Part shown: piece by piece, positions 11,340-48,621 of the stretch
Numbering within the stretch: position 1 is the first letter of the stretch
How the letters are laid out: every line of letters starts with the position of its first letter
Origin: Acanthochlamys bracteata
Lineage: Eukaryota; Streptophyta; Magnoliopsida; Pandanales; Velloziaceae
Length of the DNA: 64,000 nt
Assembly (NCBI GenBank): GCA_019914995.1
Contig: CM034130.1
Location: 1,116,001 to 1,180,000, forward strand
Reading direction: 5' to 3'
Notes under the pieces: model-generated
What the model saw: only the letters and a program-made list of their open reading frames with translations
Told to the model about the DNA's origin: nothing
Database searches by the model: none
Made by a program: the position numbers and the translations under genes

Positions 11340-11365
11340 GGCTGCCTTATCTAGGGTCCGTCTCT

Positions 11366-12754: not shown

Positions 12755-12941
12755 CTGAAGCCTGAACCCTCTCTGTTTCTCTTCGCTTCACTTCTCCTTC
12801 TTCTGTTAACTTTCTCGTGTTCGATAACAGTAAAAACGCCAGCGAAGATAGCCGGCGGCGGCGGTGAAGAAAAACTTCCCGGAGAAATTTTGAAGAAGAA
12901 AAAAAAAGGTTGACGGTAGAAGTCAGTAGAGTCACCGGTCG

Positions 12942-12950
12942 ATATATATA
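12942..12950 (-). promoter_or_regulatory. TATA box of the RMA-type gene
   Basis: TATATATATC on the minus strand lies just upstream of the proposed non-coding leader exon, at a distance compatible with transcription starting near 12915-12920. Confidence 0.55.
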
Positions 12951-12959
12951 GCGAGCGAG

Positions 12960-21035: not shown

Positions 21036-22047
21036 TAATAATGCCTAAAATCTTCATGTTATGTTCATACACTTCTTCTACCAAAAATTATTTTCGAATG
21101 ATTTAAATGTTTTCAGTTTTGAGTAGTTTTGGAGTAAATTTAGACCAAAATAATTCTGATATATGGAAATTTTCTTTGCTAATCAAAATGAATAGCTACT
21201 AATTAGACTTGACTTTCACATAGAACTAATTTTGTGAAGCGTTCATTGAAAACTAACCACCAAAGTCGTATGAAATTCTCAAAAAGGAAAAATAAATATT
21301 TCCTGTGGTGTTCTTCCATTTCAAAATTTCGGACCCTATATTTTTGCGGAGACTCAAGAGTGATACAATATTTATTTGATCTTTTGTATTCATGGTATCA
21401 AAATAAATCAAATTAGTTCCTCTCCAGACGCAGACTAGCCAACTATTTAAGAGCGTGTATTAATATCATCTACATTTTCTCAATCAAAATTTTATATTCG
21501 GATCAATTTATCATATTTTAATTACTACTTTCAATTTCATTTTCATACCAATTTTTATTTATATTAAAATTTGAACCTAAAATGTCAATTTACATATTAT
21601 ATGTATACTCTTAACTCTACTTCTATTGAAATTCTTTTTTACTAATTTTTACTTTTACAAAATGTATTTTTAAATAATTAAAATACGCCTAAATCAATAA
21701 ATTTAACTTAATTAAATTGTCTACAATTTAAGAATGTGTCTGTTTTGAAATAAACTCATTTTTAAAAATAAGTTTAAAACTTACATAAAAAATTAAAATA
21801 TAATAAAAGTAAATTTTTTTATTAATTTAATGTTAATAATAAATTTTAAAATTGAATAAAAAAAATTTAATTAAAAATTTATTTTAAATTATTTATTTAT
21901 TTTATAAAAATTAAGTTTGAAAAAAAAAAGTAGAATTTGGATTCCTAAAAAACAAAAAAGAAGAAACAATAAGAATTCCATATGGGCCAGACCATTACCT
22001 TAACCCATATAGGATCGTTACTAAAGCCCATCGTGATCATCTTTGAT

Positions 22048-22055
22048 CCACGTGT
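22048..22055 (+). promoter_or_regulatory. G-box-like ACGT site in BiP promoter
   Basis: CCACGTGT contains the ACGTG core recognised by plant bZIP factors. It lies about 130 bp upstream of the ERSE-II site and about 350 bp from the start codon. Role inferred only from position. Confidence 0.4.
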
Positions 22056-22181
22056 TTTTCATCAACCCTGATACAAAATTTTACAAGACTTACCGACCGT
22101 TAGATGGAGAATGAACGGCTTCTATCTTCACAACAATAGGTTGTTTTCTAATTGGTTCTGACCCATGGATCTCTTAATTCC

Positions 22182-22197
22182 ATTGGTCCACGACATC
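22182..22197 (+). promoter_or_regulatory. ERSE-II / plant UPRE in BiP promoter
   Basis: ATTGGTCCACGACATC contains an exact ERSE-II (ATTGG-N-CCACG, 22182-22192) and differs at one base from the plant UPRE ATTGGTCCACGTCATC reported from Arabidopsis BiP promoters. It is the expected binding site for the membrane-derived bZIP28/bZIP60 factors with NF-Y. It sits about 100 bp upstream of the TATA box. Confidence 0.85.
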
Positions 22198-22202
22198 ATA
22201 CT

Positions 22203-22210
22203 TGACGCGT
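22203..22210 (+). promoter_or_regulatory. pUPRE-II core in BiP promoter
   Basis: TGACGCGT equals the core of pUPRE-II (GATGACGCGTAC) and lies five bases after the ERSE-II/UPRE site, making a compact stress-response module. Confidence 0.6.
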
Positions 22211-22281
22211 TTACCCGCTCGTGTTGATCGTTAACGGGTTCGTTTCTAGGCGTTTCTCTTGACCCGTACCCGAAAGCTCTC

Positions 22282-22288
22282 TATTTAA
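22282..22288 (+). promoter_or_regulatory. TATA-like box of BiP
   Basis: TATTTAA lies 124 bp before the start codon, at a suitable distance below the stress elements and above a leader of roughly 95 bases. Confidence 0.5.
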
Positions 22289-22405
22289 GTTTATGCGAAG
22301 CTGATCCGAGAGCATATCGTATTCGCTCTCGATCTCGAGAGAAAGAAAGATATTGATATCGTTGTTGTTTCTCAACGAAAGGAAAAAGTTTGAGATCGGT
22401 GTGTG

Positions 22406-25995
<3,590 letters not shown>

Positions 25996-26850
25996 ATTTG
26001 TCCGTAAAATTTGTTCCTGATGGGATATAGTGAATAGGTAGACGAGGAATTAGGCCATCAAATTTCCTGTTTATTTGTTTGTACCCTGAAGCTGTCGAGC
26101 TATGGGGCTAATGTTATGTGGATATCAATCTGTAAGCAGGATGAGTGCCTGCAGGATTTTGCATACATCGTCTTCACCGGGTCCATAAAATAGCTTGAAT
26201 TGGATCTCTAATTTACGCTTTTGGAAACCTATGCTGTTCACTTTTGTTACTGTACTGAAGGCTACGCACAGTGAAGTTTTAAACAACGGCCAAGTGCACT
26301 ATTGTTTTTAGTAAAAGCTTGTGCTGTTTGAGCAAAAGCTAGTTGCATGGTTAATTGAAATTCTAGCTTGTAATAGAGAGTTGAAGCACCTGCTTGGTGG
26401 TTGTAATGTAAGAGCTAGAGTAGTTTCACTTTCCGCACGGGCTGAAATCATCAACCTGATGTTTATAACTCTTGCTTACAATTAAAAATTGTCGGATCAG
26501 CTGCTAACATGAAGAGATAGATTATCTTTTCAGTTCATAAGTAATCGATGATTATAAGCCCGTCCAGGTAATCGCAGAAAAGATATAAAGAAAGATAGTG
26601 CAAGTGGGAACAGAGAAATTCTACATGGTGTCAAAATACAAAAGAAATTTCCTTTACACCTCAGGCCAATGAGATAAAGAAAACTGTTCCAATGGCCATG
26701 GACTAAGGATAACTATAGGCAAAAGCTCCATATATATATATATATACATATATATCAGCATTCTAAAAGGCAAATTGTGGATCACCTAGATTTTCCATTA
26801 AGTCAAGAGCTATATACATACAAATTCCTAAATATTCTTCAGGTCAAGGT
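25996..26850. other. tail-to-tail spacer between BiP and ACBP gene
   Basis: Holds the 3' UTRs of two converging genes. A TA-rich microsatellite lies at 26730-26755. No other feature is seen. Confidence 0.5.
26730..26755. repeat. (TA)n-rich microsatellite
   Basis: About ten TA units interrupted once by CA, in the 3' flank shared by BiP and the ACBP gene. Confidence 0.8.
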
Positions 26851-29800
26851 TTATAAGTTAGATGAAGGCATAAAAGTCCATCGTAGTCCACAAAGATCGC
26901 TAGGAGAATTGCCATCATCATCTTTGGCATAGCAGTCAGCATTGTATTTGACAAGAAGCTCAGCAATTGCTTCTCTCTCACAGACAACAGCATAGTGCAA
27001 AGGCGTCTGACCCTCATTGTCCTGAATAGCAGAATAAGGAGATATTTCATTAAGGAATTGTCAATGTAAGAGGAAATAGAAAACAATATCGTAGTTGGAG
27101 TTGTAACATAATCCCAGTAAAAGTATAAATAATATCATAGAACAGCAACAACTGAAAGATTTAGCTTGACATCCATGATGCAGATGTAATGTTTTGGGAA
27201 AAGGAGTAGCTAAAGAAATTTCCTAGGTTCACCGATGACAATAAGTGCTAACATGAAAGCTGGATGTAGTAATAACCTGTTAAGTTAGCCTACTGGAATA
27301 CTTCGGCTCTAAGAAGAGCAACTTATAACAAATCCGCTGACAAACTAGCATGCATAAGTAGCTGAACATAAATGTACTTTCATGAAATTATTTTCTAAAC
27401 TATCTCGTGCTCGTCTTTGGTCGCCCATGTAGTTACCTTTCCATCATACCCCTTTTTCATGCTCCGAAAGCTTGAACTAGACTTAAAGATGGTAAAAATG
27501 CTTGGAAACAGTGATATCTCCACCTTGCGAAAAGAAATTTTTTAGGCTTATTTTAGAAAATCGTATAGCGGATTGTTATAATATCTTAAACATTGAGGTG
27601 CAAACTAGTTTGAAATAGAGGCATTTGTATCCAAATACTAGAACCTTCTATTCTAATGGTCTTGCTATGGCTCTTGAGAGAGAAAAAAAAATCTGGTTTG
27701 TCAGAAGAATGGATTAGGCTATATATAAATCACTTTGAAAAGTGCATCGTAAAATGTGTGGAAGGACCATTCTAAAATGGTTATCAAAGAACATCAGGAT
27801 TGAACATAATATCTGAATTCTAATCATTTTCCAAGCGAAGTGATATAACAAAGGTAGATGCATTTTTTCTAACTTCCTATTGTACCAGAAAATGTTGTTT
27901 CAAACAAAGTTATTTCTTGCTAATTGAGAATCTTAAAACTTGCTGCCATACTGTTCCACTCGATACTAGGTACAGTTCTAATGGTGTATCTGGCACATCC
28001 AAGGTTCTGTAAGACTACTGATCCAGTACACAAAATCCCCTACCTATAGAATTTGCTCTTGAATCTTGCAACATCCAACCCTTTGCATATCCAAGTAGTT
28101 GGGGATTTCCAAATCAGTTGTTAGTATTTGTAAATGCCATTGCAAGGCCTCAGCCATGTACAATGTTTAATTCACAAGCGCCAACTGACTCCAAAGGCAC
28201 CAACCAACAGAAACAAGGACAAATACGAGCATCAAGCTATGAATCTACCTTAGCATTGACATCAACATCCTTATTGATCAGAATTTCCACTATTCTTTGA
28301 TGGCCCCGGTCCACAGCCCAATGTAATGGGGTTCTCCCTTCACTATCTGTACATTAAACAGTAATAAAATGAATGAATAAATTAAAAATGCCACAAGAAA
28401 AAGAATCATATCAATTTACTAGAAAATGATATGCTCATAACAAGAAAATTCATATCGGCAAAGCCAGCTCATCCATTCAGTCGGAAGGAAAGAAGGTATA
28501 CAGGTACACAACCACAACATTTTATCAGAATAAATGAATTCCGTAGTACTGAAAACCATTAAGTTATAAAATATAAGATTATGTATCATATTAACCCGAA
28601 TTGCATCAACATGCATCATATTGTGGAACGTCACAAACCAAAGGAGAAGAAATCTCATGATGAATGACAATTAGTAGTCTACGTAATTGCTAATGCTGGA
28701 AAGCGAGGGGCTTCATTTGAAAAACCTTTTTGAACACTTAAACTGAAAAACAAAAGATGAATTTGAGAATGGCATACCCCTTGAATTTACAGAATTCCCA
28801 TTCTCAATATGCTTCAGAAGGTTACTAATATCCCCTTCTCTTGCACAGACATGTATTGCATCCAGCTTTCTACATAAAATTCAAGAAAATGTTAAGTAAT
28901 TAAAGAAAAATATAGTTATCAAAGAAATTGTGAATTTCTAATTATGAGTATGAAGTGCAAATACAAAGTCATTGGATAGGGTGAATCTTAGAGCTAAGTC
29001 AGTGAGCTAGAGAAAGAATTCACAAAATTGTATTGTGCACACAATCTAAAAAAGATTCTATTTCTTTCAAGATGTGTAAGGGTGCATCAAGAGACTTACA
29101 GATCATTGTTTGATTCTTCTTCTTCATGAACAAAGCTGCTAAAAACTGGGCCCATTGTCCCCTCAGCAGCTGAGCTAGAACCAGCAGGATCTTTATCTTT
29201 CCTTATCTATGGACAACAACAGCAATCAATGAAGAAATATTACCAAAATACTTAAATGCATAAATGAAAATAGCTGAAAGTGGTAATTTACTTACGGTTC
29301 GAGAACCATTAGCCCAAGTAGGAAATAACTCGTTTACAATCAAAATATACTGTTCCATAGCTTCTTCTGGAGGCATACCACCCAATTTCTGCCATGCATT
29401 CCTTGCACATGTCACAAAACAAAAGCCCATGTTTAAATCTCCAAGGAGCCAATGTAGCAACATACGGAAATAAAAAGAACACACAATTAGAATAATTTAT
29501 CTACAAGTAGAAATGGTTGCTTTTTCAGATTAACCAAACCACTAGAACTTTAAATTTACAACATAAATAAACAACATGTGCCCTCTAATATTCAACTTTT
29601 ATCCATAACAATGAGATGAGATTATACAAAATACTTGCATTCAAACTAGGAATGACCAAATAATTTCGTAAATTTCAATAATAAGTTTCTTTAGACTAAT
29701 GACAATTTGCCAACGCTAATCAAATACCATTCTCAGAAGAGACAAAAGGAAACTAATTATACCATTTTGCTCGCGCGGTGACCCTGAAAGCTGGAGGCTG

Positions 29801-30232
29801 CGGAGCAGCGCAGGGTCCCTCTGTTGCAATCTTATACAACCCGTAAAGCTGCAGCTGAACATCGTTGGACACCTTCGCTACCGTCCGATCAGCAGCAGTT
29901 GCAGAGACCAAAGCCGTCGCGGCACTAAAGGTTTCATCGAGTTCCGTGCTCTCTATCCTTTCCCAATCATCATTATCATCTCCTTTTCCCATCAAATTCT
30001 CTTCCTCTAATTCAACTTCTTCTCGTTCCTTCTCTTCAACTTTAATCGATTCTTCAGGCGTCATAGAAGCCAATCGATCGTCCGATTCTATGCTTTCTTG
30101 AGATTCATCTTGCCGAACAACTCTGAGATTATCTTCACGGAATAAGATCACTGTCGAGATTAGCTTCGCTACAAGGAACGCAAAAATTAGACCGATGAAC
30201 ACTGACTGCACGATCTCTTGCCAATTATTCAT
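26851..30232 (-). CDS. acyl-CoA-binding protein with ankyrin repeats, membrane anchored (ACBP1/2 type)
   Basis: Binds long-chain acyl-CoA esters, probably at the ER and plasma membrane as for Arabidopsis ACBP1/ACBP2. Six exons: 29763-30232, 29296-29401, 29100-29206, 28778-28869, 28249-28346, 26851-27021; 1044 nt, 347 residues, close to ACBP1 (338) and ACBP2 (354). N-terminal membrane segment in SVFIGLIFAFLVAKLISTVI. An acidic stretch rich in Glu follows. The ACBP domain shows YGLYKIATEGPC, ARAKWNAWQKL and PPEEAMEQYI. Two to three ankyrin repeats follow: KLDAIHVCAREGD, DSEGRTPLHWAVDRGH, DNEGQTPLHYAV. The protein ends DLCGLRWTFMPSSNL. The 1.2-kb intron 27022-28248 contains no other gene that I recognise. 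Confidence 0.95.
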
Positions 30233-31316
30233 TGCACAAAATCAAACCTACTAAAAATATATTTGAAGAAATCTTGATTCGTGATTAACAAAACCCTGGG
30301 TGAGATTTAGCGATGGCGTTCATTCGACTGAAGAACAACAAGAAAAACGAACGAGAGATCAATCATGAGATGGCAGCGAGGCAGACTGCAGACAGCGAAA
30401 GGAGGATTAGTTTTGCCATTCTCCATACTTTAAGTACTGTTTACGCCATTCTAAATATCTGAATTTCGTAAAAATAAAAAATAAAAACTAGAATTTAATA
30501 AAAAATAAAATAAAAATAAATTTTAATATTTACATTTCAATAATTTTTAAAATTTATTAAAAATTAAATATATAATTATATTTAAAAATATATTTAAAAA
30601 ATTAAAAATAAAAATTTTGTAAATGAAATTCTAAATTTATATAATTAAAAAAATATATAATTTGTTCGGAATTTAAAATTTAGCGGAGAAAGTGGGAGCG
30701 TTTGAAACGCCTAATAGGATCTTTTTTATGTAGATAACACTTTCCATCCGTCCGTCGCCGAAAGCGATCCAAAGAAAGAAGGACTTATTTTGCAGGTTAA
30801 TTATCATGGGTGTTTGATCTTGCAAATAATTTATTATATCTAAAAGAGCCACAGTTTGTTGTTGGGGGCCTTGGGCTATATGATAACTAGGATATTTAAC
30901 TATGTTAGCCCATTTCCTGACTACTTTGGCCTGACCGTTTTTATTTAATGGCTCTGATCCAAAAAATTAGTCCATATTTGTTTTATATTTTTCTAATTTT
31001 TCATGTTTTTTTTAATAACTTTTAAATATTTCATTAAAATTTATAAAATTAAAAAAATATAAAAAAGTTCGCTTCATAAAATTTTATTATTAATATTTTA
31101 TTTTTTAATTAAAAATTTTTATTTTTTGAAAAAATATTTTCTTTGTTTCGGAAGAGTTTCTTTTCAAAAGCAACATACCCTAGCCTATAATACGGTTGGC
31201 CAATTTATAACTAGGTCTGATCGGAGTTTGTTGTTGGGCGTGGTCCAGATTCAGACATATAACTCTGCTGCCGCCTTTTATTTTCACTCGTTTCTTCGCC
31301 GGAGACGAAACCAGCG
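30233..31316. other. divergent promoter region between ACBP and ABCF3 genes
   Basis: Both start codons point outwards. Bases 30465-30665 and 31000-31130 are extremely AT-rich with no clear terminal inverted repeats. No coding exon is seen. Confidence 0.5.
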
Positions 31317-34300
31317 ATGGCGGAGGTAGCGAGCGCGGTGGTGCACGAAGTTCTAGGCCGGCGAGCGCTCGATGTAGACAAGCCAATTATCAACTACATA
31401 ATCAACGTTCTTGCCGACGATGATTTCGATTTCGGTCTTCATGGTGAAGGTGCTGTTGAAGCTCTCGGTGAACTTCTCATTGATTCAGGTTGCGTTAGCG
31501 ATTTCGAAGAGTGCCGTTCGGTAATGTTTCTTTGCCCGTCGATTTGTTTTGAGCCATTGCTTTGATTGAAGTTGGTATTATTGAAGTTATAGTTTTTGTT
31601 CGTAGAGAAAGCTTTGATTTGTTTCATTGGTTACTTGTGGGGATACACGGAAAAGTAGCAGATGGGTAATAGATTTTTCTTCCTCATTTAGTACAGTAAG
31701 AAATTGCACTTGAGTTAGTGGAGAATTTTAGTTGTTATAATTACTGGTCTATTAGAAAAGTGAAAAAGATTTGAGTTGGAGCATGATTTCAGTTCGACTC
31801 GAATTTTTTAATTAATCCATCTGTGATTGTAATAGAAAATTTACTTTAGTATATGCATGTTTAGCTAATGTATTGACTAGTGGGTATTCATCTGGTAGCA
31901 CCCCTAGGAAGAAGTCCTGCATGGCAAGCTTACCATGGAGAAGGTTTTAACCATCCCATTCAAATGATTGCAATTTGAACATGCAGGTTTGCAGCTTGCT
32001 TTCAGATAAGTTTGGGAAACATGGGTTAGTGAAACCTAAACCAGCTGTGAGGAGCCTTGCAACTCCACTTCGGATGTTTGATGGGATGGATGAAGAGCAA
32101 GCTCCGAAGAAGCAAGCTGAGGTGTTTGATGGTCCTGTTCTATCCGAACGTGATAAAGCAAAGCTTGAAAGAAGAAAGAGGAAGGAGGAACGCCAGAGAG
32201 AGGTAATTGCTCATCTTGTCCACTTCTTTCGCTGCTTCCACAACATTCATAATACATGTCAACCTCATTGGGAGTTTGTCATGAAGAAGGACCATGTATA
32301 TTCCGCTTGTAGCTGGATTAGTTTATATTTTAATTTCCGACATTCGTAATACTTGACAACTTCGTTATGGAATCCATGCGCCTAGTCTGGTTGAATCTAT
32401 AGAGCATGTCCTCTTCATAGATATCTGAAGTTTTCACAATGTATGCCTGAATGAGTAGTTATTTGCAGCAAGCTGCATCAATGACGCTAACTGCTCTCAT
32501 ATTGTGTGGAGCAGGCCCAATATCTGATGCATTTAGCGGAGATGGAAGCAGTTAAAGCAGGAATGCCTGTCGTAGCCGTAAGACACGATGGAACTGAAAG
32601 TGGTTCTAATGTCAGGGATATTCACATGGAGAATTTCACAATATCGGTTGGTGGACGTGATCTTATTGAAGAGGCTACGGTTACTCTTTCGTTTGGAAGA
32701 CATTATGGTAAGTGCTGTCTATCTCAATAACCAACCTAGGATACATCTTTAATGTTCTTCTGCATTAGTATCATAGTGTGGTTGGTCTAAGTTTGAGTTT
32801 TGAGCACATACTTTTAATTTCAATTTTATAAGGTTGATAAGACACTTTGGGTTGCATGTTTTGGAAATCAGAACAGGTGGTGATTTTTTCCCCTCTCTGC
32901 TGTTCCTATTCTTTTGCAGGCCTTGTTGGTAGAAATGGTACTGGTAAGACATCTTTCTTGAGACATATGGCAATGCATGCTATTGATGGTATACCCTCAA
33001 ACTGCCAAATACTGCATGTGGAGCAAGAAGTTGTGGGTGATGACACCACTGCGCTGCAGTGCATCCTGAACGCTGATGTTGAGAGGGTCCAGCTCTTGGA
33101 AGAGGAAGCCCGCTTGCTTTCTCTTCAGGTTGTTGATGATTATAATGTTCAAAACTTTGTGAATTCTTTTATTGTTTGTTAATTTTACTGACATTATGAT
33201 TTGCATGTAGAGGGATCTAGAATATGAAACTGAAACTGACAAGAGGCAGATTAATGGAGGTCTCGATAAAGATGCTATTTCAAGGAAACTTGAAGGGATT
33301 TATAAAAGGCTCGAGTTTATTGATGCTTACTCTGCGGAATCTCGTGCTGCATCCATTCTAGCGGTTAGTTTTACACTTTGAATATTTTAATGGAGTTGAT
33401 TTTGGTATCTTTCTTCTCATAGATAACCGTTACTGCAGCCTACATTCCAGCTAATTTGCTTGTAGCATGATGCATAAATAGATAATGACCTACTCACCTG
33501 TTAGCATATTGTGCTAATTTGCAAGCCAGAAGCTTCATAGCTGAATTTAGCATAGTGTGTTCTCTTTTGAATTTAGTAGCAATAAGGAAGCATTTATATC
33601 TTATGCCTTTGTAAGTTGCTTCCATTTTCGCTTGCATAAAAGGGTGTTTTGTTGCAATTTCAAGATGATTTCTAGGATCGTGAAGTAATGTGACTGACCT
33701 GCAAGAACAAAATATGAAGAGGAATTCAACTTGTTTTTGACACCACTATGTAAGATTTTATTCTGTTAGTCGTCACTAGTACAAAATATGTTGATGTGCT
33801 ATCTTGATCGGGTGCATCTTGCCTTTGCTGACTTATTTTACTCTAGTCTTGATTAATTCGTAATCTTTATCAAAGATACTCAGAACTAATGTCATTAGTA
33901 GTTACTGAGAATTTTAGCTGGTCTTGTACAATGTGCAATACTTATAGCTTTATTTGATGTTTATGCTGCTATTATCTTTTAGAGAGATATATTCTCTCAT
34001 AGTGGAGCTTACTTCTTGTGACATGTCTATACAAATTTCAGGGTCTTAGTTTTACCCAGGAAATGCAGAAGAAACCTACTAAAGCTTTCTCAGGTGGATG
34101 GCGTATGCGAATAGCTTTAGCTCGCGCTCTATTCATTGAACCTGATCTTTTACTTCTTGATGAACCAACGGTAATGCTCAAAATCATGGATTATATGTTC
34201 AAAGATATGAAATGCTGTGTGTATGTGCGGGTCAGTATGCATGGGTGCATAATGAACTTGTGATTATTTGGTATCTCATCTTTTTCGCAGAACCATCTTG

Positions 34301-37300
34301 ATCTTCACGCTGTGTTATGGCTGGAGTCTTACCTTGTGAAATGGCCAAAGACTTTCATTGTTGTTTCTCATGCTAGAGAGTTCTTAAATACGGTATGCTG
34401 GATAAAGTTTCCATGTAGATATTTACAGAATGTTTTATAGGAAGTAGTTAGAAGGAAATGCTTCCATTTCTCTAAAGAGTTATCTGAAATAACCATCTCA
34501 GGTAGTGACAGATATCCTCCATTTGCACAATAAGAAGCTCACTGCTTATAAAGGGGACTATGATACATTCCAAAGGACACGAGAGGAACAACTCAAAAAT
34601 CAACAAAAGGCCTTAGAGACAAATGAGAAAGCTAGAGCCCACATGCAGGTTCATCTTCATACTAGAAGTACTTGAGTAATCATCTAGTCAATATTTCATG
34701 CTTTTAATTAGCAATCTTGTATATTGCAATGTTCTGTAATATCTTATAGCTCACACAGGCCTTATTTAGATATCCTCGGAATTGTTATCTGTTTTATTGA
34801 CATGGAGACTGCTTCTTCCATGATAAGTTGTGTATGTTAAATCATATTGCAGAACTATGCATGCTATTGATCATTCTAGGAGAGAAGGGAAGGGAATAGA
34901 AACAATCTTATCATATATAGTAGTCAGTAACTTACATGTGCAAAAGAATACGGTAGGCTAGGTATGTTGGATTCTCGGTTAAAAAATGTTTCATAGCCAA
35001 AGTATGTTAACCATGAGAATCTTCCTGAAAATGACCAAGCACGGCATTATTGTGCTAAAAGTATTTCACTTTTTACTATCAAGTTTGCATGTTATTTGTT
35101 GATTCACTCGACGATTGATTATTCTACATGAAGGGGTTTAGTTGGAAGCATTGTGGCATTTATTGTGTTCAACTTAAGATAAAGTAATGATTGGGATTCA
35201 TTTAACAAGTGTCATGTCATCGATATGCTGCCTGATGGTGGATGATCTTACTGTGAACATCTATATTCAGACTTTTCCATTTTCTTTGTTGTGCAGGCCT
35301 TCATTGATAAATTCCGTTATAATGCTAAACGAGCGTCTCTTGTTCAATCGAGAATTAAGGTGATTTATTCCTGTGGCTTCTTTCATACTTGAACATGAAA
35401 GGATTCTAAAAATCTGCTATAAAACCTTAAAATGAGAAGATAGTATGTTTAATATCCTTGCACAATCATATTCTCAATTTGTTCTAAATGCTATTTTGTC
35501 TTACAGGCATTGGATCGAATGGGCACAGTTGATGAAATAATCAATGACCCAGAGTAATACTTTCTCTTGCATTGTTGGTTTCTAGTCTCTCTAGAAGCTA
35601 GAAGGTTTACATCTTGTTTTTGTATTTTGATTTTAAATTATTGTTTTTTTGGTCTTGTCCTTGCAGCTATAAGTTTGAATTTCCAACTCCAGACGACCGA
35701 CCAGGGCCCCCTATTATAAGTTTCAGGTTTGTTGTAAATTCATTTCAGTTAAATTAGTTGATATCTAGCGTGTAAAGTTTGTCTGTTTATATAGAATGAA
35801 ACTAAGTTATGACATGAATATTCACATTTCTAGTTCAACTTTTGCCTCAATTTCCTCCTATCAAATTGTCTTCAATGCATCAAAAAGCTTATGACAAGGG
35901 TGGCGTTTGGCAAAGCGTTTCCCAAAAGCAGCTTTTCAATTTTCTATTTCACGTTTTTAAATATATTTTTTATAAATATTTCGAGAATTTATTTAAAAAT
36001 TTTAAAAAGTATAGAAAAATTTTATGTAGTAAGATTTTTTTTGCTTACTTTTATTATTATTATTTAAGTTAAAAAAAGGAGCTCGTTTTTTAAAAAAGAT
36101 AAAAATATTTTCCGTTCTAGAAAAGCTCCATTTCGAAAGCACTTCCAAATGCCCCCAAGAATTTCTCCCTTACTTGCATTGACTTCCATATGCCATTTTT
36201 TACTAAATATGCCTTAAGGTTAAAAGTGTCAAAATGGTAAACTTGTTATTGTTTTAATAGTGTCATTCATAATGCTGTGTTATACAACTCAGAGTTGTTT
36301 GATTCTATTTGCAAAAAGGATGATAATGATTAGCTCAACTCTTTAAGGCCAAGTACGTGGTGCATTAACTTGTTTTAGGGGGCGTTTGGCTAAGCTTTCC
36401 AGAAAAGTAGCTTTTCAATTTTTTAGTTCACACTTCTCAATACACTTTTTATAAGCATTTAGAAAAATTATTTAAAAATTTTAAAATTATAGAAAAATTC
36501 TATGTAGTAAGATTTTTTATGCTTATTTTTTTAGGTCAAAAAGGTAGAGCTTGTTTTGCAAAATAAACAAAAATACTCTCCGTTCCAGAAAAGCTTCATT
36601 TAAAAGCACTCCCTAACGCCCCCTTAGTGTCTATTTTTCCCTTTTAATAGTTGAAGACTAACTGGCACAGAACCTTTTGCAGATGGGATGTTTATTTCTT
36701 TGAAATCTGCTTTATGCTGTGATTCATGAATAGTTTGAAGTAAGCAGTGTCTTCTGTTTAGGTCAGGCATCTAGATGTTCTTGTTGATGTTTAATAGAAT
36801 TTATCTAGGAAGTTTCATATGTCAGAGTGGAACCTTACTGCCTTGTGCTAATATTTTGGAAAAGTTTACACGAGTTAGCTATTCAGTAAGCTTGATCATG
36901 AGTACCATTTTTCATGAGTTTAGCACTTCTAGCATGCTACTATTAACCCTTCCACATCAGGCTTATTTTATCAGTGAATTACTAATGTCAAGGAGTGTAT
37001 TCATATAGATTAAATTTCCTTTTTAATAATTTTCCACTGAAAGTAATCACTTGATGTTAGAGGAATTGATGCAAAATTAGAATAGTGCAACTCTAAGATT
37101 TCTTTTAAAGAATATTTTACACAATAGCTTCCCTTTCTTCAGACAAGATAGATGATTTCATCGGAGGCCAACTGATGGGACTCATAATATACTGCAGAAC
37201 TTGCTTTAGAGCCATACATCGTATTATCTGGTTGTATAAGTTATGCATGTTTAATTAAGACTCTCAGCAGTATGTGATGCTAAGTTCTTTCTTCTACTTC

Positions 37301-39915
37301 AATTTATTATGATTTCTTGTTGCCCAGTTTTCTGAAGTATCTAGTGATATTGCATTGTTATTGTTTCAGTGATGCATCATTTGGTTATCCAGGAGGGCCC
37401 CTTTTATTTAAGAACCTGAACTTTGGCATAGACTTGGACAGTCGTATAGCAAGTAAGATTTTCTCTATCATCATTCAATCAAGTTCTAAATGTTTTTTAA
37501 TGAAAATTTTATGAAAACTTTTACTGAGTTATTAGTAAATAGCCATTCTGTTTCGGTTATTTAATAGAAGTGCTTTAGGAAGCACATTTGTGTAAGCTTT
37601 TGCTTCCACAGTACATGCTTTATAAGTGTTCTTCTCTTAACATGGATGAGAAACTCGATACAAAATGGAAAATAAAGCTATCTCCTTGGTCTAAACTACA
37701 TGTAATGAATGAAACTGCATGACCACTAGCTGCAATGTAGGTTTATTATGAAGGTTGGAACTTGACTGGACTTCTAGTAGAGTTCAAGGACCATAGGAAG
37801 GCTATCCAATCTTCTTGGAGTGTCTTTGCTAAATACTAAATTTCATACTCTGATCATTCTGTTCATGGTAGTGGTTGGCCCAAATGGTATTGGCAAGTCT
37901 ACCATTCTTAAATTAATCTCTGGAGATCTTCAACCAACTTCTGGGACAGTTTTTCGTTCTGCGAAGGTATATGTTTGCTTAGTACGCGAGTTCAAATTCC
38001 ACCTAGCTTTCACCCATATGAAATTGAGTGATTGTTTTTTCTTTTTAACAGGTTCGTATGGCGGTATTTAGTCAGCATCATGTTGATGGGCTGGACTTAT
38101 CTTCAAATGCTCTTCTCTATATGATGCGTTGCTACCCGGTAAGTAAGAATGTTGACATTGTTTATTATTGAGATATACTCAATTTCTTTGCAAGATATGT
38201 AATAATGTAATAACACTTCCTCTACAATCGTCACCGTTAAGTAAATAGGCTATGACTTTTTCATTAGTGAAAGGATTATGCTGTTGAGATATAAGCCTGT
38301 TACTGTTTAATATAGAAACCAGGTCCATCCTTCAGAGGAGAGATCTTCATGAGATTTCTTTAGTCTGATCTTTTGACTTTGAAGCTTTTAGTTGGGTTGA
38401 TCATTGAGTTTCTGAGAGTGCATTTTATAGATCTTATATATGCTTTGGTAAATGAATGTGGTCATGTATTATTGATTAATGTGTCTGAGACTGTATGGCC
38501 CAATTTGTCAACATGGTTCATATAAGTCATTCACTTGCTTCATTTTCTAGTTAATCTTCCATATCTACTCCGACTCTGTTGATGGTAAGTTCATCTACTA
38601 TATACTTAAGTTTATCCAAATTACAGAAGGATATAGTGAATGCAGTCATTACATGATTCTTGTGCATGGCAAATTCCGTATAGATCGATGTATCTTGTTA
38701 ACTAATACTATATAATACTTGCCAGGGGGTACCTGACCAAAAGCTCAGAGCTCATTTAGGTTCTTTTGGCGTGAGTGGTAATCTTGCACTACAGCCAATG
38801 TACACGTTATCTGGTGAGTATTAGGCTTAATGGTACATAGTTGTTACTGTTGCTATTAGCATTTTTAACAACCACTTATCTAGAGCACAGAGAGTCTTGA
38901 TTGAGATCTTCAACCAGAAAATGAAACATTAACTTATGAGCTCTTTTATGCCTCAGGTGGTCAGAAAAGCAGGGTTGCCTTCGCAAAGATAACTTTCAAG
39001 AAGCCACACATTATTCTTCTTGATGAACCTTCTAATCATCTTGTAAGTGCTTCAATTATTGAATTCTAAAAAGTACTGTGTATTTTTAGTGAATCAGCAC
39101 ATAGTTTGGTATAAGTAACACTTTTTGCTAATTAAGTACATTTTTTTATTGTTTGTTGGAAGTTTGTCATGCCAACGACAGAATGAAGGCCCAAATAGAC
39201 ATGGTTAGGAACCTTTTAAGTAAAATGATATTTTTAGCGATCAGTGACCTTTGCAAAAGTAGGTGATATCTCATTTTGGTAAATGATGCATGTGCAAAGA
39301 TTTAGTAACCAATCGCACCTAGTGATTGTTTGCATTAGCTTAAAATTATTTAGTCTGGATCTTTGGCCATGTTAGTTTGCATAAACTACCATGTAGATTC
39401 ACATTACAGCTTACAAGTTCTACAATCTTGATTTCTAACTCAAAACTCTTTTGCATCTTTTGGACTATGGTGTGCATAAGAGTTACTCTATTTCAGCCAT
39501 GGATTCTTTGGCTGTGTTAACACCAGAACTGTGCAACTATTCTTCTATTTCAGTTGTCTTCTAAAATATTTGTGCTTAAACAAGACATCCATAAAAAGTG
39601 AGTTGGGTTTGATTGCAGGATTTGGATGCAGTTGAAGCCCTTATTCAAGGTCTTGTGCTCTTTCAAGGCGGTGTTCTGATGGTAATTCTTTATCCTCCAA
39701 TAAGAGTGCAGTCTGGTTCTAGGCGTCGTTTCAGAACAGCTAACTCTTATTGTTTCTTTGTTAAAGGTCTAATTCAGCTATATCAATTGCAGGTAAGCCA
39801 CGATGAACATCTAATATCAGGGAGTGTCAGTGAACTATGGGCTGTATCAGAGGGCAAGGTCACACCATTCTCTGGAACGTTCCAAGATTACAAGAAGATG
39901 CTCAAGTCGTCTTAG
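31317..39915 (+). CDS. ABCF3: ABC-F family protein, GCN20/ABCF3 type
   Basis: Soluble twin-ATPase ABC protein without membrane segments, related to yeast GCN20, a translation regulator acting with GCN1 on eIF2alpha kinase GCN2. Eighteen exons: 31317-31520, 31987-32202, 32515-32707, 32920-33128, 33211-33363, 34042-34170, 34291-34392, 34502-34648, 35297-35359, 35507-35553, 35667-35726, 37370-37452, 37872-37966, 38052-38138, 38726-38813, 38957-39042, 39619-39681, 39793-39915; 2148 nt, 715 residues, the length of Arabidopsis ABCF3. First cassette: Walker [10 protein letters not shown] (about residue 206), signature [12 protein letters not shown], Walker [13 protein letters not shown]. Second: [11 protein letters not shown] (about residue 536), [24 protein letters not shown]. 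The usual GCN20 N-terminal region and a charged linker are present. Intron 11 (35727-37369) carries two MITEs. Confidence 0.96.
35898..36156. mobile_element. Tourist-like MITE, family A copy 1 (ABCF3 intron 11)
   Basis: Left end GGGTGGCGTTTGGCAAAGCG; reverse complement of right end GGGGGCATTTGGAAGTGC. The inner sequence aligns with copy 2 (shared AGCAGCTTTTCAATTTT-like start, TATAGAAAAATT, ATGTAGTAAGATTTTTT). Flanks do not retain an exact three-base duplication. Confidence 0.75.
36378..36623. mobile_element. Tourist-like MITE, family A copy 2 (ABCF3 intron 11)
   Basis: Ends GGGGGCGTTTGG and, as reverse complement, GGGGGCGTTAGG. It is flanked on both sides by TTA (36375-36377 and 36624-36626), the target duplication typical of PIF/Harbinger elements. 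The 246-bp body is non-coding. It is 222 bp from copy 1 in the same orientation and clearly related to it. Confidence 0.85.
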
Positions 39916-41184
39916 TATCCTATATCAAACTATATAATTCGAAATACAAGATTTATTAAGGGGCTATTTGGTATTGCTTTTCTAGAAAGTAATTTTTTAA
40001 TTTTTAATTTTATATGTTTTATTACATCTTGTATAAGTATTTAGATAATCTATTTAAAATTTTTTAAAATATAAAAAAAATTTTATATAAGGAAATTTTG
40101 TATTATATATTTATTATTTTTTTAAATTAAAAAAAAGCTCATTTTTAAAAAAAATATTTTTTTATTTTAAAAATATTTTCAAACGTTCCCTAAGAAATGT
40201 CTCTGTTGTTCTTCAAAACTATCTTTATTATTTAAATTTTGTTATGAAGTGCCCCGTCATGCTTATCTTGTATACCTCAACCACTGGGATAAAAAAAAGC
40301 CGTATTTATTATACAACCAGCGTTACTACTCAGTAGCCACTTTTGTATGTACTAAGTTTATTACATATCTTCACAAGCAGATAATTATTTGATTGGTTTT
40401 TGTTGTTAGTGTTCTAATTGAAGTAGTTGTGTAGATGCAAAAGTTATCATTCTTAAAAGCATTTTTAATCACATATGGTTCATTTTCTTGTTTAATAACT
40501 TACCAGATGATAATCATTAACTTCTTCTGCCGGCACTATCTTCCATCTTTTGGGACCAAACCATTATCTTCCAACGTAGGCATTTGGCCTAGTTATAAAT
40601 CAAAGTAGGCTAAAGGAAAGTTTTTCAACGTTCGTAAAAACGAAACTTTTCAAAATAAAAGATATTTTAAATTTTTTGTATTTTTTTAAAAATAAATATA
40701 AATAATAATAACATAATTTTATGATATATGTAATTTTTAAAAATTTTAAAATTTTTTATACAATTTATTTAGTATCAATTTTTTTTAAAAAAATACTTGA
40801 AATACTATTTATATAATTCAGTCATTAACCTAAGTTAGTTGGTAGTAAATTGAGCTGTTCGCCTTCTATCGACAGTTGTTAATTTTTCTGACCAGAAGCT
40901 TCTTTTTCTCCTGGATTAGGATTTTTTTTTTTTAAATTTTATTTTTGGTCATTACGGAACCCACGATAACAACAATGAATTAACCTGCAACAAATGAGCC
41001 ACACGCACCAGCCATAAGTGGCCTTCTTTTTCTTCAACGGCTGCTCGATCCCTTTCTTTCTCTCTCCCTCTCCTAACACGTTTCTCTTTCTACCTGCAAT
41101 CAATCAATTCTCAATTCAGATTCAACCAATTTTTACCCTAATTCCTCGATCAAGGACAAAAAAAGCTGAGAAATTTGCAATAAA
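39916..41184. other. intergenic between ABCF3 and the 79-residue protein gene
   Basis: Contains the MITE at 39960-40190 and another AT-rich stretch at 40620-40820 without clear ends. The last 250 bases are pyrimidine-rich and should be promoter and leader of the next gene. Confidence 0.5.
39960..40190. mobile_element. Tourist-like MITE, family A copy 3
   Basis: Left end GGGGCTATTTGG, right end as reverse complement GGGAACGTTTGA. TAA flanks both sides (39957-39959 and 40191-40193). It starts 44 bp after the ABCF3 stop codon, so it may lie in the 3' UTR of that gene. Confidence 0.8.
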
Positions 41185-41424
41185 ATGGAGAACGGCGGAT
41201 TCATGTCGTGTGAGACGCTTGACAGGATGGCGAATTGGTTAGGAACAAGCGTTGCTTCTGCCTTCTTCGCTTCCCTTGAGCGATGCTCTTGCATAAATCT
41301 GAGCACCACTGATGTCGACGATGATCCACCTGAAGAAGCCAAAGATCGCCCGCTCATGCTCACCAAACCTATTGTCCTTGATGATTCTTCAGTCGCTTGC
41401 CACGAGAAGTTTCCCCCTGTTTGA
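41185..41424 (+). CDS. small plant protein of unknown function, 79 aa
   Basis: Single-exon frame with start [15 protein letters not shown]. The sequence [19 protein letters not shown] looks like a conserved core (a small-residue, amphipathic helix followed by Cys-x-Cys); it is followed by an acidic stretch, [16 protein letters not shown]. There is no signal peptide or clear membrane span. I believe similar short unnamed proteins exist in other eudicots, but I cannot check that here. Codon use looks like neighbouring genes, and a pyrimidine-rich leader precedes the start. No function can be proposed. Confidence 0.7.
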
Positions 41425-43502
41425 TCTATTCGCCGGTCGATCAACCTCTTTCATCGCTAATTGGTACAACTTTCTAATCGAACCATGTGTTGGTTTGTCG
41501 ATCTCGATAGGCTGTGGCTTGCTTGATCTAGCTGGTCGGGTTTGTACTTGTTTTTAAGTCTGTGTGTGTTTTGTGGTTTTACGTTAATTGTAATGTGCTC
41601 ATGTAATTGGCAGGGTTTGGTATCTAATCAATGATGATTGTGTGTGTTGGAATTGTGGAAGTGAATTGAATCACAGTATCTGAACCTATAAGAACTAAAC
41701 GTCACTTTGTTGTGCAATTATTGTGACTGCTGAGGTAATGCATAGCTGATAATAGATTCCAGCTATTTAGGATTGGAAACATCTGAATGTTAAGTACACA
41801 ATCAAATGGCTTGCCTTATATTTGTTAGCTAGCCATAGCAGATAGCTTTTTTCCTAGTGTGATTTAGTTTTTTGAGCTCAATCTATTCTATGGTTCTTAG
41901 AGTTAGATGTCAATTTGTTTTAATCTGGATGTGAATGCTTGCTTTTGTTGTGTTAGGAATCAGGGATTATGGTGGATTTTATGTTTATTTCATGGGACTT
42001 CTTTTCCAACCATTACTGCTTGTCTTTTTGGTCATGGAAAAATGGAAATGGCATATTATCTTTGTGCAGTCAATATAGGAATTGTGGGTGATCCGTTTAG
42101 ATCATGGGTTTTCTCTCTCATGCATTTCTTATTTTACATCTGCTTTCCTAATTTCGCCTCATGCTATTCTCTCTTTTATTATGGCAAAGGGTCACTACAA
42201 GCAACGCTACTCAACTTGGAGCATCTTTGCTTTTCACTTATTATGTCCTTCTTGTAGCTAGCTTGCGAATGTTTATGTAGATTCAGCCCTACTGTAAAGT
42301 TAGTCTGCAAGCCTTTGCCTTTTTTTTTTTTTTTTTGCATTTCTGTTTTTTCGTAGCAACTTGTCGTTTATGAATAGGTTAATAGGGCAAGTTGAAAATA
42401 GCGTAATGTTTTTGTTTATTTTAGCATAACTTTATCCCTAGACTGATCCTTCTTTTTAGCAAACTTGCTCCTGTTCACCACAAGTACGGTAGACCTGAAC
42501 TGGTAGTTAGCTTGCGTCTTCTAGTTAGGCAAGAACATTAAGTTTATTTTCCACAGTACACGATAGTGTAGTGCGACCACTATGAAGTGGGATATATAAT
42601 GTGGGATTTTACCATGGACCTCTTAGATGCAAACAAACTAATGGACTGATGTTTTTATAAACCTCCTACCAGGTTGTGCATTTCAGGGGCACTTTGAAAC
42701 AGCAACTTGGTGTGTTCAGCAACCTCTCATACATTTCGCTTTTTGTGATTAATAGCCTTCGACTGCTGTTGTTGATAAAAGCTCATACACGCTAATTTTC
42801 TGTAGCGCAAAAGATATGGATGGTTATTGACATTCTTATGCGTTTTTTACAGCACAGTGTTGATGCAATTGCAGATTGTGGACAAAAATCCGAGTTTTAG
42901 TACAGCAAAAGGTACGACGTGTGTTGCAGTCTTTACGGTTCCTTTTTCTAGTAGAGTGGAAGAATCCAATATGTTGCAGCTGGTAGTGAGATTTTGCAAC
43001 CTTTTTGTTTAATTTGCTTCACGAAAAGATATTGTTGTGAACAGAAAATGCTTATTATACTCTACAGCGCTCAATTTACCTCCACGCCTCACTTTTCTGT
43101 AAACCAAAGTAGCTCGTATATGTTTCTCGGATCCTGAAATTTGTTACAAAATATTAGTAGATGTTAGCGCATTCACGACGAGTATAAAAAATTGTGAAAA
43201 ATATTGGAGTTTTAAATATGGGCTTTGTCAGATTGGCCTTGTTGGGCTGAGAAGTAATATTTGGATTGTATTATTGCTTTCTCCAGCTAAAGTAATGTGT
43301 TTATTTTGAAATAAATTTATTTTTTTAAAAGTAAATTTAAAATTAAATTAAAAATTAAAAACGTAATACAAAATAAATTTTAATATTAAGTTTGTATTAC
43401 TAGTAAGCTTTAAAATTAAATTTTAAATTTTTTTATTGATTTTATATGAAAATAGTAAATTTTGATTGGTAGATAAGAAAGAAAGTAGGGTGTGAAAATT
43501 TA
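41425..43502. other. 3' flank of the 79-residue gene, mostly featureless
   Basis: A T-tract of about 18 bases lies at 42319-42336. Bases 43294-43500 are AT-rich and resemble family B ends (GTGTTTATTTTGAAATAAATT). I see no coding exon; the 3' UTR or a spliced non-coding transcript could lie here. Confidence 0.4.
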
Positions 43503-43744
43503 GGGGTCGTTTGGAAATTTTTTTTTAAAAGCTCATTTTTATTTGTTTAGTTTACAATTTTCAAGATATTTTTTATAAATATATAAAAAATTTATTTAAA
43601 ATTTAAAAAATATAAAAAAATTCATGTAATAAATTTTTTTATTATTTATTATTATTATTATTTATTTAAGATAATCTAATTTATTTTTTAAAAAATATAA
43701 AATATTTTTCGTTTTTTTATTTTATAAGTATTTCTAAACGCACC
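43503..43744. mobile_element. Tourist-like MITE, family A copy 4
   Basis: Left end GGGGTCGTTTGG, right end as reverse complement GGTGCGTTTAGA. Left flank TTA; right flank TTG, a target duplication with one difference. Its right end abuts the exon-like fragment at 43745-43877. Confidence 0.7.
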
Positions 43745-43877
43745 TTGTCAGCCTCGGTGACTTTCTTGTTGATCACTGCGAGCAGCTCATAGTGCAGGTT
43801 GACATGCGCAGATGATCCAAGGCTTTTGCATATGGTTCTCAAAGCAGTCCTTATAACAAGATGATCATATCTCCTTC
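43745..43877 (-). other. unidentified exon-like fragment (possible gene remnant)
   Basis: On the minus strand an acceptor-like CACTTTTTAG is followed by about 41 open codons with protein-like composition (includes RRYDHLVIRTALRTI and NLHYELLAVINKKV), ending at a GACAAG/GTGCGT junction. That apparent donor is also the terminal repeat of the adjoining MITE. It lies downstream of the broken GRXS17 gene on the same strand but does not look like glutaredoxin. I do not recognise the family. It may be a lone exon of a destroyed or displaced gene. Confidence 0.35.
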
Positions 43878-44219
43878 CTAAAAAGTGTAACCATCAACAA
43901 AAAGTGAAACTTCAAACTCTACCTATCTCAATTTTGTTAACTTGAAGTAACTTGTTCTCTTACAAATGTCAAATACATAGATTGCAACAAGTAACAATTT
44001 GCAAAACATGAAGAAGGAGCAAAATTGTGGTAGGCAGGTAATTGAAACAGAAAACTTTGAGAAATAGTACCAAATAGGCTTGAAACTTATTCGGCATTTC
44101 ACCAAGAATACTTAAAAGCTTCAATCTAATTGTCATGAGTTTTGGACAGATATGAACTAACATTTTAATTAATATTTAGCTTAGACTGGTAACGATTCCA
44201 CGCACCGTCAGATATCCAT

Positions 44220-47200
44220 CTATTCAGAGAGGGTGGACTTCAGCTCACCATCGCGCTGCAGTTGCAGCACAATATCACAACCTCCGATCAGCTCGCCTTT
44301 GTAGTACAGCTGAGCAAAAGTTGGCCAATTTGAGTACTTCTTCAGTCCCTGTCTCACTTCTTCATTGTTCAGGATGTCAAAATAACCAAAGCCGATTCCT
44401 TCATTCTTCAGCGCATCAACGACCTTGGAGCTAAAACCACAGTGGGGGGCATCAGGTGAACCTTTCATGAAGAGCATAGTTGGTGCAGAGGATAGCAAGG
44501 TTTTTAAATGATCTCCGAGAGTTCCTTTCTGAAGAATCCCCTTTTCAGCAAGCATCTTTTTCAGCTCTCCGCTTTTCTGCATCTCCAACAGGATATCAGA
44601 TCCTCCAATGAGTTCGCCCTTTACATAAACCTGAGGATAGCTGGACCAGTTAGAGTAAACTTTCAGGCCCTGCCTTACTTCTTCATCCGAAAGAATGTCA
44701 AAGCTCCCAAAGTCAACATTCTCTTGTCGAAGGATCTCAACAACCTTACGGCTAAAACCGCACTTACGTTCATCTGGCTTCCCTTTCATGAACTTATAAG
44801 GCTCTCGATTCTAGACGTCAATGCTGCGCTCAAACCTGTTGCTTCAGTTATACCTCCACCCTTTGGAGCACTAGCAACCTCATCCAAAGACTTGACAGAT
44901 TCTGTAGCTTTTCTCTCATTTGAAACAAGACTAATCCCATGGTCTCTAAATACCTCCTTTAACTCACCACTTTCATGCATAGCAAGTACTATGTCGCAGC
45001 CACCAACAAGTTCACTATTGCAGAAGAGCTGTGGGAATGTTGTCCAGTTGGCAAACTTCTTCATCCCTTCTCGAACTTCATTATCTGTGAGTATGTCAAA
45101 GCTTCCGAACCGAACCCCCTCATTTCTCAATACGTTGACTACCTTGCGGCTGAAACCACTTGGGGCTGATAAGGAGTTCCTTTCATGAAGAGGAAAACTG
45201 GGTGTGGATTGATCAAGAGCTGCAACCGAGTTCTCAGTTGATCAGTAAGTCCAGTGTTGGCATTTTGTTCCTGAAACAAACCATTTCCTTTTGCCATCTC
45301 TTTTACTGTCTCAAGTACTGCAGGTCCAGCAGCCATCCAAGACTGGCAGGAGAAGCTGATTCTGCATGCTCTGCAGATCCAGCAAGTTTTGCAACCTTAT
45401 TTGCCAGACCAGATGGATTTGCACCCTCCATTGTGTCAACAGTTTTTCCATTCTGACACAGCAAGTAGAAATAGTTAAGTTCTCCCCTGTACTGTATACA
45501 TGAATATAGGCACCCTGAATTTGCCTGAATCACGTCTATTAGACAACCAAACCCCACTGCAGCATAAAGAAAGATGGAACATGGTACTTCTACATAACAA
45601 TGCCTACAATAAACTTGGCTTCCTCTCCATTTGTTTCTCCAGTGCAGTCCATTTTAATCTATATAAGATAACGAATTTTAACTACTCTTCTAAGAGTTTG
45701 TCATTCGGGCGAGGGCAAAATATTTAAACTTCAAAGTCTACGCTATAGGATTTTAGCTACAAAATCATCATATAATAATGCTGTACACAATATGACTATC
45801 AACTGCATTATGTTTCTCAGTTTAATGAACTTACTCTCAAGAAATTACTATGTTTGATTTTCTTACAACTAATCATCTGATCATTTATCAAGAAGGGTAA
45901 TAACGCCTTTTTCATCTGATCAATAATCAAGAAGTAACAATGCCTAATTCAGATTAGTCAGGGCCAGAAATTATCAAATAATATTCTAGAGACTTTATAC
46001 GATAAGAAAGATCCATGAAGCCATCCTATGTCATCAAACATAGATTCAAAGAGAATGCTCATAGTTATTATCTTTAGTTGCAATTATTCAACAAGAGCAG
46101 CATGCAGCAAATATCAAGCCTAATCAACCAGTTGGAAATATTTTGTTGGATCACTTCAAAATGTCGCTCTGTTTTAAACCGTAGATCAACTTCTCAACAA
46201 AGTAGACACCCATTTCAATGCTCAATATATAGAAATTAAATGTGAGATAAGTGTCCGCCACAGCAATGATTGTTACATTTAAAAAAGAAAGTTACCAAAG
46301 GTCTCTGATGAAGTTCCAAAAGCAACACTTCCTATAAATTTTTACCACATTACAAGCACTAGATTAGAAAAGAACAATCAATTTGGGCTTGATTACTTGA
46401 AAAACAAGACCTTAGCTCAATACTAACCAAAAGCAATCAGAAGCACCTGATGATTCACAAGTAGCAAGTTTCAAAGTAACAAGCATGAAACTGGTAACCT
46501 TGCAGAAGGCGAAATACGGGACTGCTGAAACAGAAAATGCCTCTGAGATTTCTGGTTGTTCCTCTGCCTCAACCTAATAAAATGACAAACAAGAAATGAG
46601 AAATGAACTAATTCTGATTTGTTTTCTGATTGAAAGATAATCTTTCAATCTAGATGCAAAACAAGATATAAACCCATACTATAACAGGCATGAGTAAATT
46701 GTCGTATTTTAACCAAATACAAATGAATTCATGTACACATATATAAAGGCGGTATCATGTCAAGTAATCTTTTCATCTTCCAAATGAAGCGCTATTTCAT
46801 TGGTTACTCACATGTCTCTCACTTGAAATCATGTACAATCTAGTAATATATCAACCAACTCATTACAAACGCTTCAAGAAAAAGGCCAATATTTAGTTGC
46901 ATAATGACTGAGTTATGCAGAGAAATCTAGACATCTAGCCGAAGTGAAAGTCTCAAGAGAAGGCTATTTCTAAGAGTCATAAACTAGTATGTTCAGAATA
47001 GCATGTATAAATTTTGAATGCAAGATCCCGTCTATGTAAGTGTTATGGTAGATTATGTCAAAAAACAGTAAACTAATTGTCCCCTGTAGGACTCAGAAGT
47101 AAACAGACTGTAAAAAGCGTTAACTAGAAGGCACTGATATACTAGAAAATCTCACAATACACAAGAACATTCAGAATTAACTAGAAACTAAGATCTTAAA

Positions 47201-47742
47201 CAAAACATAGTACACAATAACAAGCCATTCAATAAACCTCTAATTTTACAAGATTCTACACAACAAACAGTGATCATTTCAGAGATTAGAAGAATTGGGC
47301 AATCTACTCAAGCCAGTGAACAAAGCACAAGAGTGGGAAAACTTCGGAAAAAAATCAAGCATACAAAATTACACTGCAAAGCACAACAAATAAAGCAAAA
47401 TAATACTAAAGATTATTTGAATTCCCTCTTTCTCTTCCTTCTTCCTTGATAGAAGGAAAAGTTTAAAACTATAAACATGAACAAAATAAAGCTCTCTAAC
47501 TACAGACTAGGGAGAGAGAGAAAGAGAGAGAAATCAATTAACGAATCGAAACGAACCCTGAGGAATCGAGCATGAGGGAAATCAGTAGCGAGGTGAGTAA
47601 AAACTTGGTCCATCTGCTTTGAAGCTTCACATCAATCAGCCCAAAAGTGTAACACCGCCGGCGGCTTCCCAACATCGATCAACTCATCCAACTCCACCTT
47701 CGATTTCACGTCCTTCACAACACCGCCCCCGCCGTTCGCCAT
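44220..47742 (-). pseudogene. GRXS17: GRXS17-like monothiol glutaredoxin (PICOT type), degenerate
   Basis: In other plants GRXS17 is a thioredoxin-like domain plus three CGFS glutaredoxin domains, binding Fe-S clusters in cytosol and nucleus. All parts are here on the minus strand: exon 1 47557-47742, exon 2 46499-46573, and a large last exon 44220-45452. Splice sites are intact and the N terminus (MANGGGGVVKDVKSK) is good. Breaks in the frame: TGA at 47632-47634 where the family has Trp of the WC motif; a one-base loss near 45335, between ASLG and MAAGP; a two-base loss near 45158 that removes the CGFS cysteine codon of the first glutaredoxin domain; and a loss of about 19 bases near 44797, just before FMKGKP of the second. 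The second and third domains keep CGFS. Because introns are retained it is not a retrocopy. A functional copy presumably exists elsewhere. Errors in the assembly are a less likely explanation. Confidence 0.88.
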
Positions 47743-48382
47743 TTCGTTCGATTGCTTTCCGTATTATTCAAATTAATCGAGAGCACAAGCTATGAAATCT
47801 CTTTGCGGTCCTGTGTTGGTTCGTTCTCAAATTTGGATTTTCTTCACGAACGCGACCATGATAAATCACGCTTTTCCGAGATTCGCGATCCGAGAGACGC
47901 TTGCCTGCATTAATGACTCATGGATTGGGTTGCGTTTAAATATAATGAACTAAAGCCCACTATCTTATTACGGTGGGCCTTTGGGTATATGGCCCATAGT
48001 TAATCGGCCTTGTGGAATATGGGTTAAGTCGGCCGAGTTAAAACGGCGATTCTTGAAAACGACAAGGATACGAGGACGAGAATTAAAAGGGTTTTGTTTA
48101 CTTTGAAACTAACAGTCCTACTAATCTCGCAATAGATACTCACATAAACCCGATGTTTGTCGTCAACACTCTTAATCCTAAAGCGCAAGATTAGTCTAAA
48201 CGTGTTCCTTCACAATATCCATGGTTATTTTTGCATAACAAGACCTTGACTAATTATCTTCGCTTTATCTGGGCTTCCAAGTTAGTAGTACTGGGATCCA
48301 GCTCCCTTTTAACTATGAAATCGTCAACTAGGAAATTGCTTAAACCCTATGCACAAATATTGCTTAAATATTTATAACTTTA

Positions 48383-48565: not shown

Positions 48566-48621
48566 TTTCTCTTGTTAGCAAAATCTTAGTGATAGTATCA
48601 AGAAAACTAACCCAACCTAGA

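What the first reader, a model, noticed from the sequence alone, without database searches (positions are those of the whole stretch)
44220..47742. GRXS17-like gene is a broken, intron-bearing copy
All exons and splice sites of a GRXS17-type glutaredoxin are present, but four separate lesions break the frame: TGA for the conserved Trp at 47632, a one-base loss near 45335, a two-base loss near 45158 that hits the CGFS cysteine codon, and a loss of about 19 bases near 44797. Ten other genes in the window read through all their exons without a break, so random sequencing error is an unlikely cause. GRXS17 is often single copy in plants, so either another copy exists or this lineage has altered a conserved Fe-S/heat-tolerance protein.
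Basis: partly seen in the sequence, partly recalled or inferred. Interest (0 to 1): 0.7.

Follow-up and report, generated by a model that had tools for sequence, protein, structure and literature searches.

The report
Dead duplicate of glutaredoxin GRXS17
This is a decayed second copy of a plant glutaredoxin gene, left over from an old duplication of a chromosome stretch or the whole genome, while an intact copy survives on another contig; it is an ordinary outcome of gene duplication.

Summary
At 47742-44220 (minus strand) lies a three-exon GRXS17-type gene with GT-AG introns, broken by TGA for a conserved Trp, two one-base net losses and a 19-base loss. One correction: the change at the first CGFS motif is a net loss of one base, not two, so the three losses total 21 bases and the last 189 codons return to frame. 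The copies lie in collinear blocks over 10.6-48 kb of the window, with matches resuming just past its end, so this is a segmental or whole-genome duplicate, not a retrocopy. Pair Ks is 0.33, like neighbouring coding pieces; overall Ka/Ks is 0.20. Of 35 Grx-domain amino-acid differences, 20 can be polarised: 17 fall on the window copy, 3 on C3. Best reading: a duplicate kept under selection for much of its life and then lost. There is no sign that the lineage lost GRXS17. Reads and transcription could not be tested.

The parts
47557..47742 (-). Exon 1 (Trx-like domain, first part), ATG kept
   Evidence: Alignment to intact C3 exon 1, 91.8% identical over 183 ungapped columns
47632..47634 (-). 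TGA in place of TGG (Trp36 of the intact copy); leaves a 36-aa open frame from the ATG
46499..46573 (-). Exon 2
   Evidence: 90.7% identical to C3 exon 2; intron borders GT..AG
44220..45452 (-). Exon 3 (end of Trx-like domain, Grx domains 1-3, normal stop kept)
   Evidence: 88.9% identical over 1231 ungapped columns to C3 exon 3
45338..45339 (-). Site of one-base loss (GGG to GG)
45159..45160 (-). Site of net one-base loss that destroys the Cys codon of the first CGFS motif
44789..44790 (-). Site of 19-base loss at the start of Grx domain 2
44220..44789 (-). Residual open frame of 189 aa: truncated Grx domain 2 plus Grx domain 3
   Evidence: two Pfam glutaredoxin stretches
44313..44315 (-). 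Ala codon where the intact copy and the other Grx domains have Pro (position 473; the name cis-Pro of the TFPQ motif is recalled, from no call)
10627..48068 (.). Block collinear with C3:10398003-10431098, with the broken gene near its end
   Evidence: blastn: 21 of 25 matches in order and same direction; one off-diagonal minus-strand match and three cross-matches between Grx domains

Best explanation
A non-processed pseudogene of GRXS17. A large duplication (whole-genome or segmental) gave this plant two collinear copies, one on C3 and one on C5. Both kept their introns and were under purifying selection for much of the time since; the C5 copy (window) then lost function and collected a nonsense codon, three frame-breaking deletions and amino-acid changes at conserved sites, while C3 carries the GRXS17 function. 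Shown: intact C3 copy, collinearity, lesions, asymmetry of change. Inferred: order of events, loss of function, and that C3 is the working gene.
For: Intact C3 copy with one thioredoxin and three glutaredoxin Pfam stretches. DNA search of the genome with 44220-46575: four matches, all at this locus or C3. Protein search: 20 matches, only C3 and this locus cover all four domains. Block 10627-48068 collinear with C3 (21 of 25 matches); C3 sequence further on matches C5:1180109-1181971, 109 bases past the window's end, in three pieces of the same order and direction. Introns kept in both. Pair Ks 0.33, Ka 0.067, Ka/Ks 0.20 over 493 of 504 codons. Nine neighbouring pieces (of 56; at least 59 codons, no stop, Ka/Ks up to 0.31) have Ks 0.33-0.72. 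Of 35 Grx-domain differences 17 are polarised to the window copy and 3 to C3 (binomial p 0.0026); at positions invariant in the other domains it is 7 to 1, the one on C3 being position 315, beside the 19-base loss.
Against: No reads or RNA could be examined. 13 of 35 differences could not be polarised and 2 were seen on both sides. No outgroup species was available: sister domains served instead, which favours finding changes at conserved sites. The last 189 codons are open. The locus keeps its ATG, its splice borders and an alignable upstream stretch, so it may still be transcribed.
Confidence: 0.93

Rival explanations
1. The lesions are assembly or sequencing errors and the window copy is a working second GRXS17.
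For: One loss is in a short G run; reads were not available.
Against: A 19-base loss, a nonsense change and a destroyed Cys codon in one gene; excess of amino-acid changes on this copy; no further match of 44220-46575 among the 557 contigs.
Confidence: 0.03
2. The residual 189-codon frame is expressed as a short protein with a truncated Grx domain 2 and a full-length Grx domain 3.
For: Open ATG-to-stop frame with two Pfam glutaredoxin stretches; fewer-domain forms exist elsewhere: a rice splice isoform with two Grx domains (PMC5698295, passages) and one-Grx yeast orthologs (PMC6071589, passages). Ka/Ks between the copies over this piece is 0.12.
Against: It starts inside exon 3 and lacks the Trx-like domain and the first part of Grx 2. 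In residues 315-503 the polarised changes are 6 on the window copy and 1 on C3, with residues invariant in the other domains lost at 322, 408, 456 and 473. The low pair Ka/Ks mostly reflects the time before the loss. No promoter evidence was sought.
Confidence: 0.03
3. A processed (retro-) copy or a recent tandem duplicate.
For: None beyond being a broken copy.
Against: Both introns kept at the same places; the copy lies in a long block collinear with another contig.
Confidence: 0.01

Closest known systems
Plant GRXS17 (Arabidopsis AtGRXS17, rice OsGRXS17)
   Same: Trx-like domain followed by three Grx domains, as described for AtGRXS17 (PMC6071589, passages) and OsGRXS17 (PMC5698295, passages); the C3 copy has all four in one spliced frame. 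No plant GRXS17 sequence was at hand to align.
   Different: The window copy cannot encode it: 36 codons, then TGA, then three frame-breaking losses.
Human GLRX3 (PICOT)
   Same: The best PDB matches by sequence are glutaredoxin-3 domains (2yan, 3zyw; Trx part 2wz9).
   Different: Two Grx domains in the human protein (PMC6071589, passages), three here.
Non-processed pseudogenes left when one duplicate is lost after a large duplication (fractionation; recalled, from no call)
   Same: Collinear intact partner, introns kept, disabling lesions, asymmetric amino-acid change.
   Different: Nothing tested sets it apart.

Membership tests
GRXS17 (functional gene) | Trx-like plus three CGFS Grx domains in one open frame | tested here: not met
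   Window copy: TGA at its codon 37 and three frame-breaking losses. The C3 copy meets it.
GRXS17 (functional gene) | CGFS in each Grx domain | tested here: not met
   Cys codon of the first motif destroyed in the window copy; motifs 2 and 3 read CGFS.
Non-processed pseudogene of a duplicate pair | Introns kept at the partner's positions | tested here: met
Non-processed pseudogene of a duplicate pair | Disabling lesions relative to an intact paralog in the same genome | tested here: met
Non-processed pseudogene of a duplicate pair | Both copies in collinear blocks | tested here: met
Non-processed pseudogene of a duplicate pair | Relaxed constraint on the broken copy | tested here: met
   17 to 3 polarised changes of 35 differences; sister domains, not an outgroup species, were used
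Non-processed pseudogene of a duplicate pair | No functional product | not testable with these tools
   No RNA or protein data
Whole-genome (rather than segmental) duplication | Genome-wide collinear pairs at the same Ks | not tested
   Only this block was examined

The most novel reading that the evidence does not exclude
The broken locus still gives a product: either the 189-codon two-Grx frame, or an RNA that acts on the intact C3 gene through its close sequence match.
Probability: 0.03. Interest if true: 0.45.

Novelty: new member of a known kind. Interest (0 to 1): 0.12.

Why it matters
It is a clear small example of duplicate loss, useful for annotation (the locus should be marked as a likely pseudogene), but it does not change what is known of GRXS17.

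Tried and rejected
Gene conversion: residues 87-144 (start of exon 3) are unusually alike between the copies (3 synonymous differences in 42.8 sites, Ks 0.07 against 0.33 overall), but the best low-divergence tract (residues 103-144) is not significant in a permutation test on synonymous changes (p 0.12, 2000 shuffles; the script gave a numerical warning in the likelihood). No claim is made.

Altered GRXS17 in this lineage: rejected, intact C3 copy. Retrocopy and tandem copy: rejected by introns and collinearity. A second assembly of this copy with an open frame: no further match of 44220-46575 (exon 1 was not in that query, but the protein search found no third place for it).

Papers: searches for GRXS17 with pseudogene (1 paper, maize transcriptomes), with single-copy and duplication (0), with whole-genome duplication (1, chestnut), with glutaredoxin, Arabidopsis and heat (40, 15 listed), and for two of glutaredoxin gene family, GRXS17, segmental duplication (8). 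In what the listings show, none reports a broken GRXS17 duplicate; four papers were looked at in passages only, none read whole. The library lacks most subscription papers. The species was not identified.

Full report
What is there. On the minus strand at 47742-44220 lies a three-exon gene with exons at 47742-47557, 46573-46499 and 45452-44220. Both introns begin GT and end AG. The genome holding the window (195.5 Mb, 557 contigs, unnamed) was searched with the glutaredoxin family: 45 matches at E up to 0.001, among them three domains in one 431-residue open frame on contig C3. A DNA search with 44220-46575 gave four matches, all at this locus or at C3:10426897-10429490. The C3 locus splices to 1512 bases without an internal stop, and its protein carries one thioredoxin and three glutaredoxin Pfam stretches (which also lists three weaker or overlapping families). 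In a protein search of the genome (20 matches) only C3 and this locus cover all four domains; the rest are single-domain or short pieces.

The lesions. Aligned to the intact copy: TGG to TGA at 47634-47632; one base lost at 45339/45338; a net loss of one base at 45160/45159, which destroys the Cys codon of the first CGFS motif; 19 bases lost at 44790/44789. The three losses sum to 21 (exon 3 is 1233 bases against 1254), so the last part is back in frame, and an ATG at 44789 opens a 189-codon frame to the normal stop. Read from its own ATG, the gene gives 36 residues. Two substitutions stand out: Pro to Ala in the TFPQ motif of domain 3 and Pro to Thr just before that motif in domain 1.

Where it came from. 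Comparing the window with 63 kb around the C3 gene gave 25 blastn matches; 21 run in order and in the same direction from 10627 to 48068 of the window against C3:10398003-10431098, one is an off-diagonal minus-strand match and three are cross-matches between Grx domains. Upstream of the gene the match stops at about 48068. C3 there has a gene whose last exon weakly matches the Mlo family, below Pfam's cut-off, with no counterpart listed in the window. Further C3 sequence matches C5:1180109-1181971 in three pieces, starting 109 bases past the window's end. So the pair sits in duplicated blocks. Whether the whole genome was duplicated was not tested.

How it decayed. Pair Ks is 0.33 and Ka 0.067 over 493 codons. 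Of 56 matched pieces, nine outside GRXS17 have at least 59 codons, no stop and Ka/Ks up to 0.31; their Ks runs from 0.33 to 0.72. Exons are 89-92% identical; introns (81-82%), 500 bases upstream (80%) and 300 downstream (79%) are less so in a gap-tolerant global alignment that inflates non-coding identity, and local alignments give about 69-76% outside exon 3. So coding constraint acted for much of the time. Using the other Grx domains as a stand-in outgroup, 35 amino-acid differences in the Grx domains divide into 17 on the window copy, 3 on C3, 2 seen on both sides and 13 unresolved; p = 0.0026 for 17 of 20. At positions invariant in the other domains the count is 7 on the window copy (169, 181, 257, 322, 408, 456, 473) and 1 on C3 (315, beside the 19-base loss, where alignment is least sure). 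Both human glutaredoxin-3 domains aligned keep the C3 residues at 408, 456 and 473 (read by eye). A hand estimate (excess of 14 of 20 scaled to 35 differences, over about 705 nonsynonymous sites, against Ks/2 of 0.17) puts the relaxed phase at very roughly the last fifth of the time since duplication. This is a rough inference, not a computed date.

Reading. This is a non-processed pseudogene of a duplicated GRXS17. [quoted passage not shown] No read or RNA data were available, so assembly error and residual expression are unlikely rather than excluded. The finding is well observed and ordinary.

Noticed in passing
window 45280-45452: The first 58 codons of exon 3 are nearly identical between the two copies (Ks 0.07 against 0.33 overall), a hint of gene conversion that a permutation test did not support (p 0.12).
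   Followed up: partly
window 31490-41164: About 9.7 kb here correspond to about 1.7 kb in the collinear C3 block; a repeat scan of 31000-41600 listed one three-copy 109-base direct repeat and no other of 80 bases or more.
   Followed up: partly
window 48068-64000: Collinearity with C3 stops just upstream of the gene and resumes past the window's end; a Mlo-like exon on C3 (L009:6767-7210) has no counterpart listed in the window.
   Followed up: partly
window 48622-49262: A dispersed repeat of about 640 bases: 40 other places at 79-92% identity are listed, from 40 scored of 1807 candidates.
   Followed up: no
window 44508-45188 (+): A 226-codon open frame antisense to the broken exon 3; probably a by-product of the coding strand's codon use.
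   Followed up: no
window 23679-24011: A homeolog-matched piece with one stop (Ka/Ks 0.38) between two well conserved stop-free pieces; perhaps an intron, not examined.
   Followed up: no
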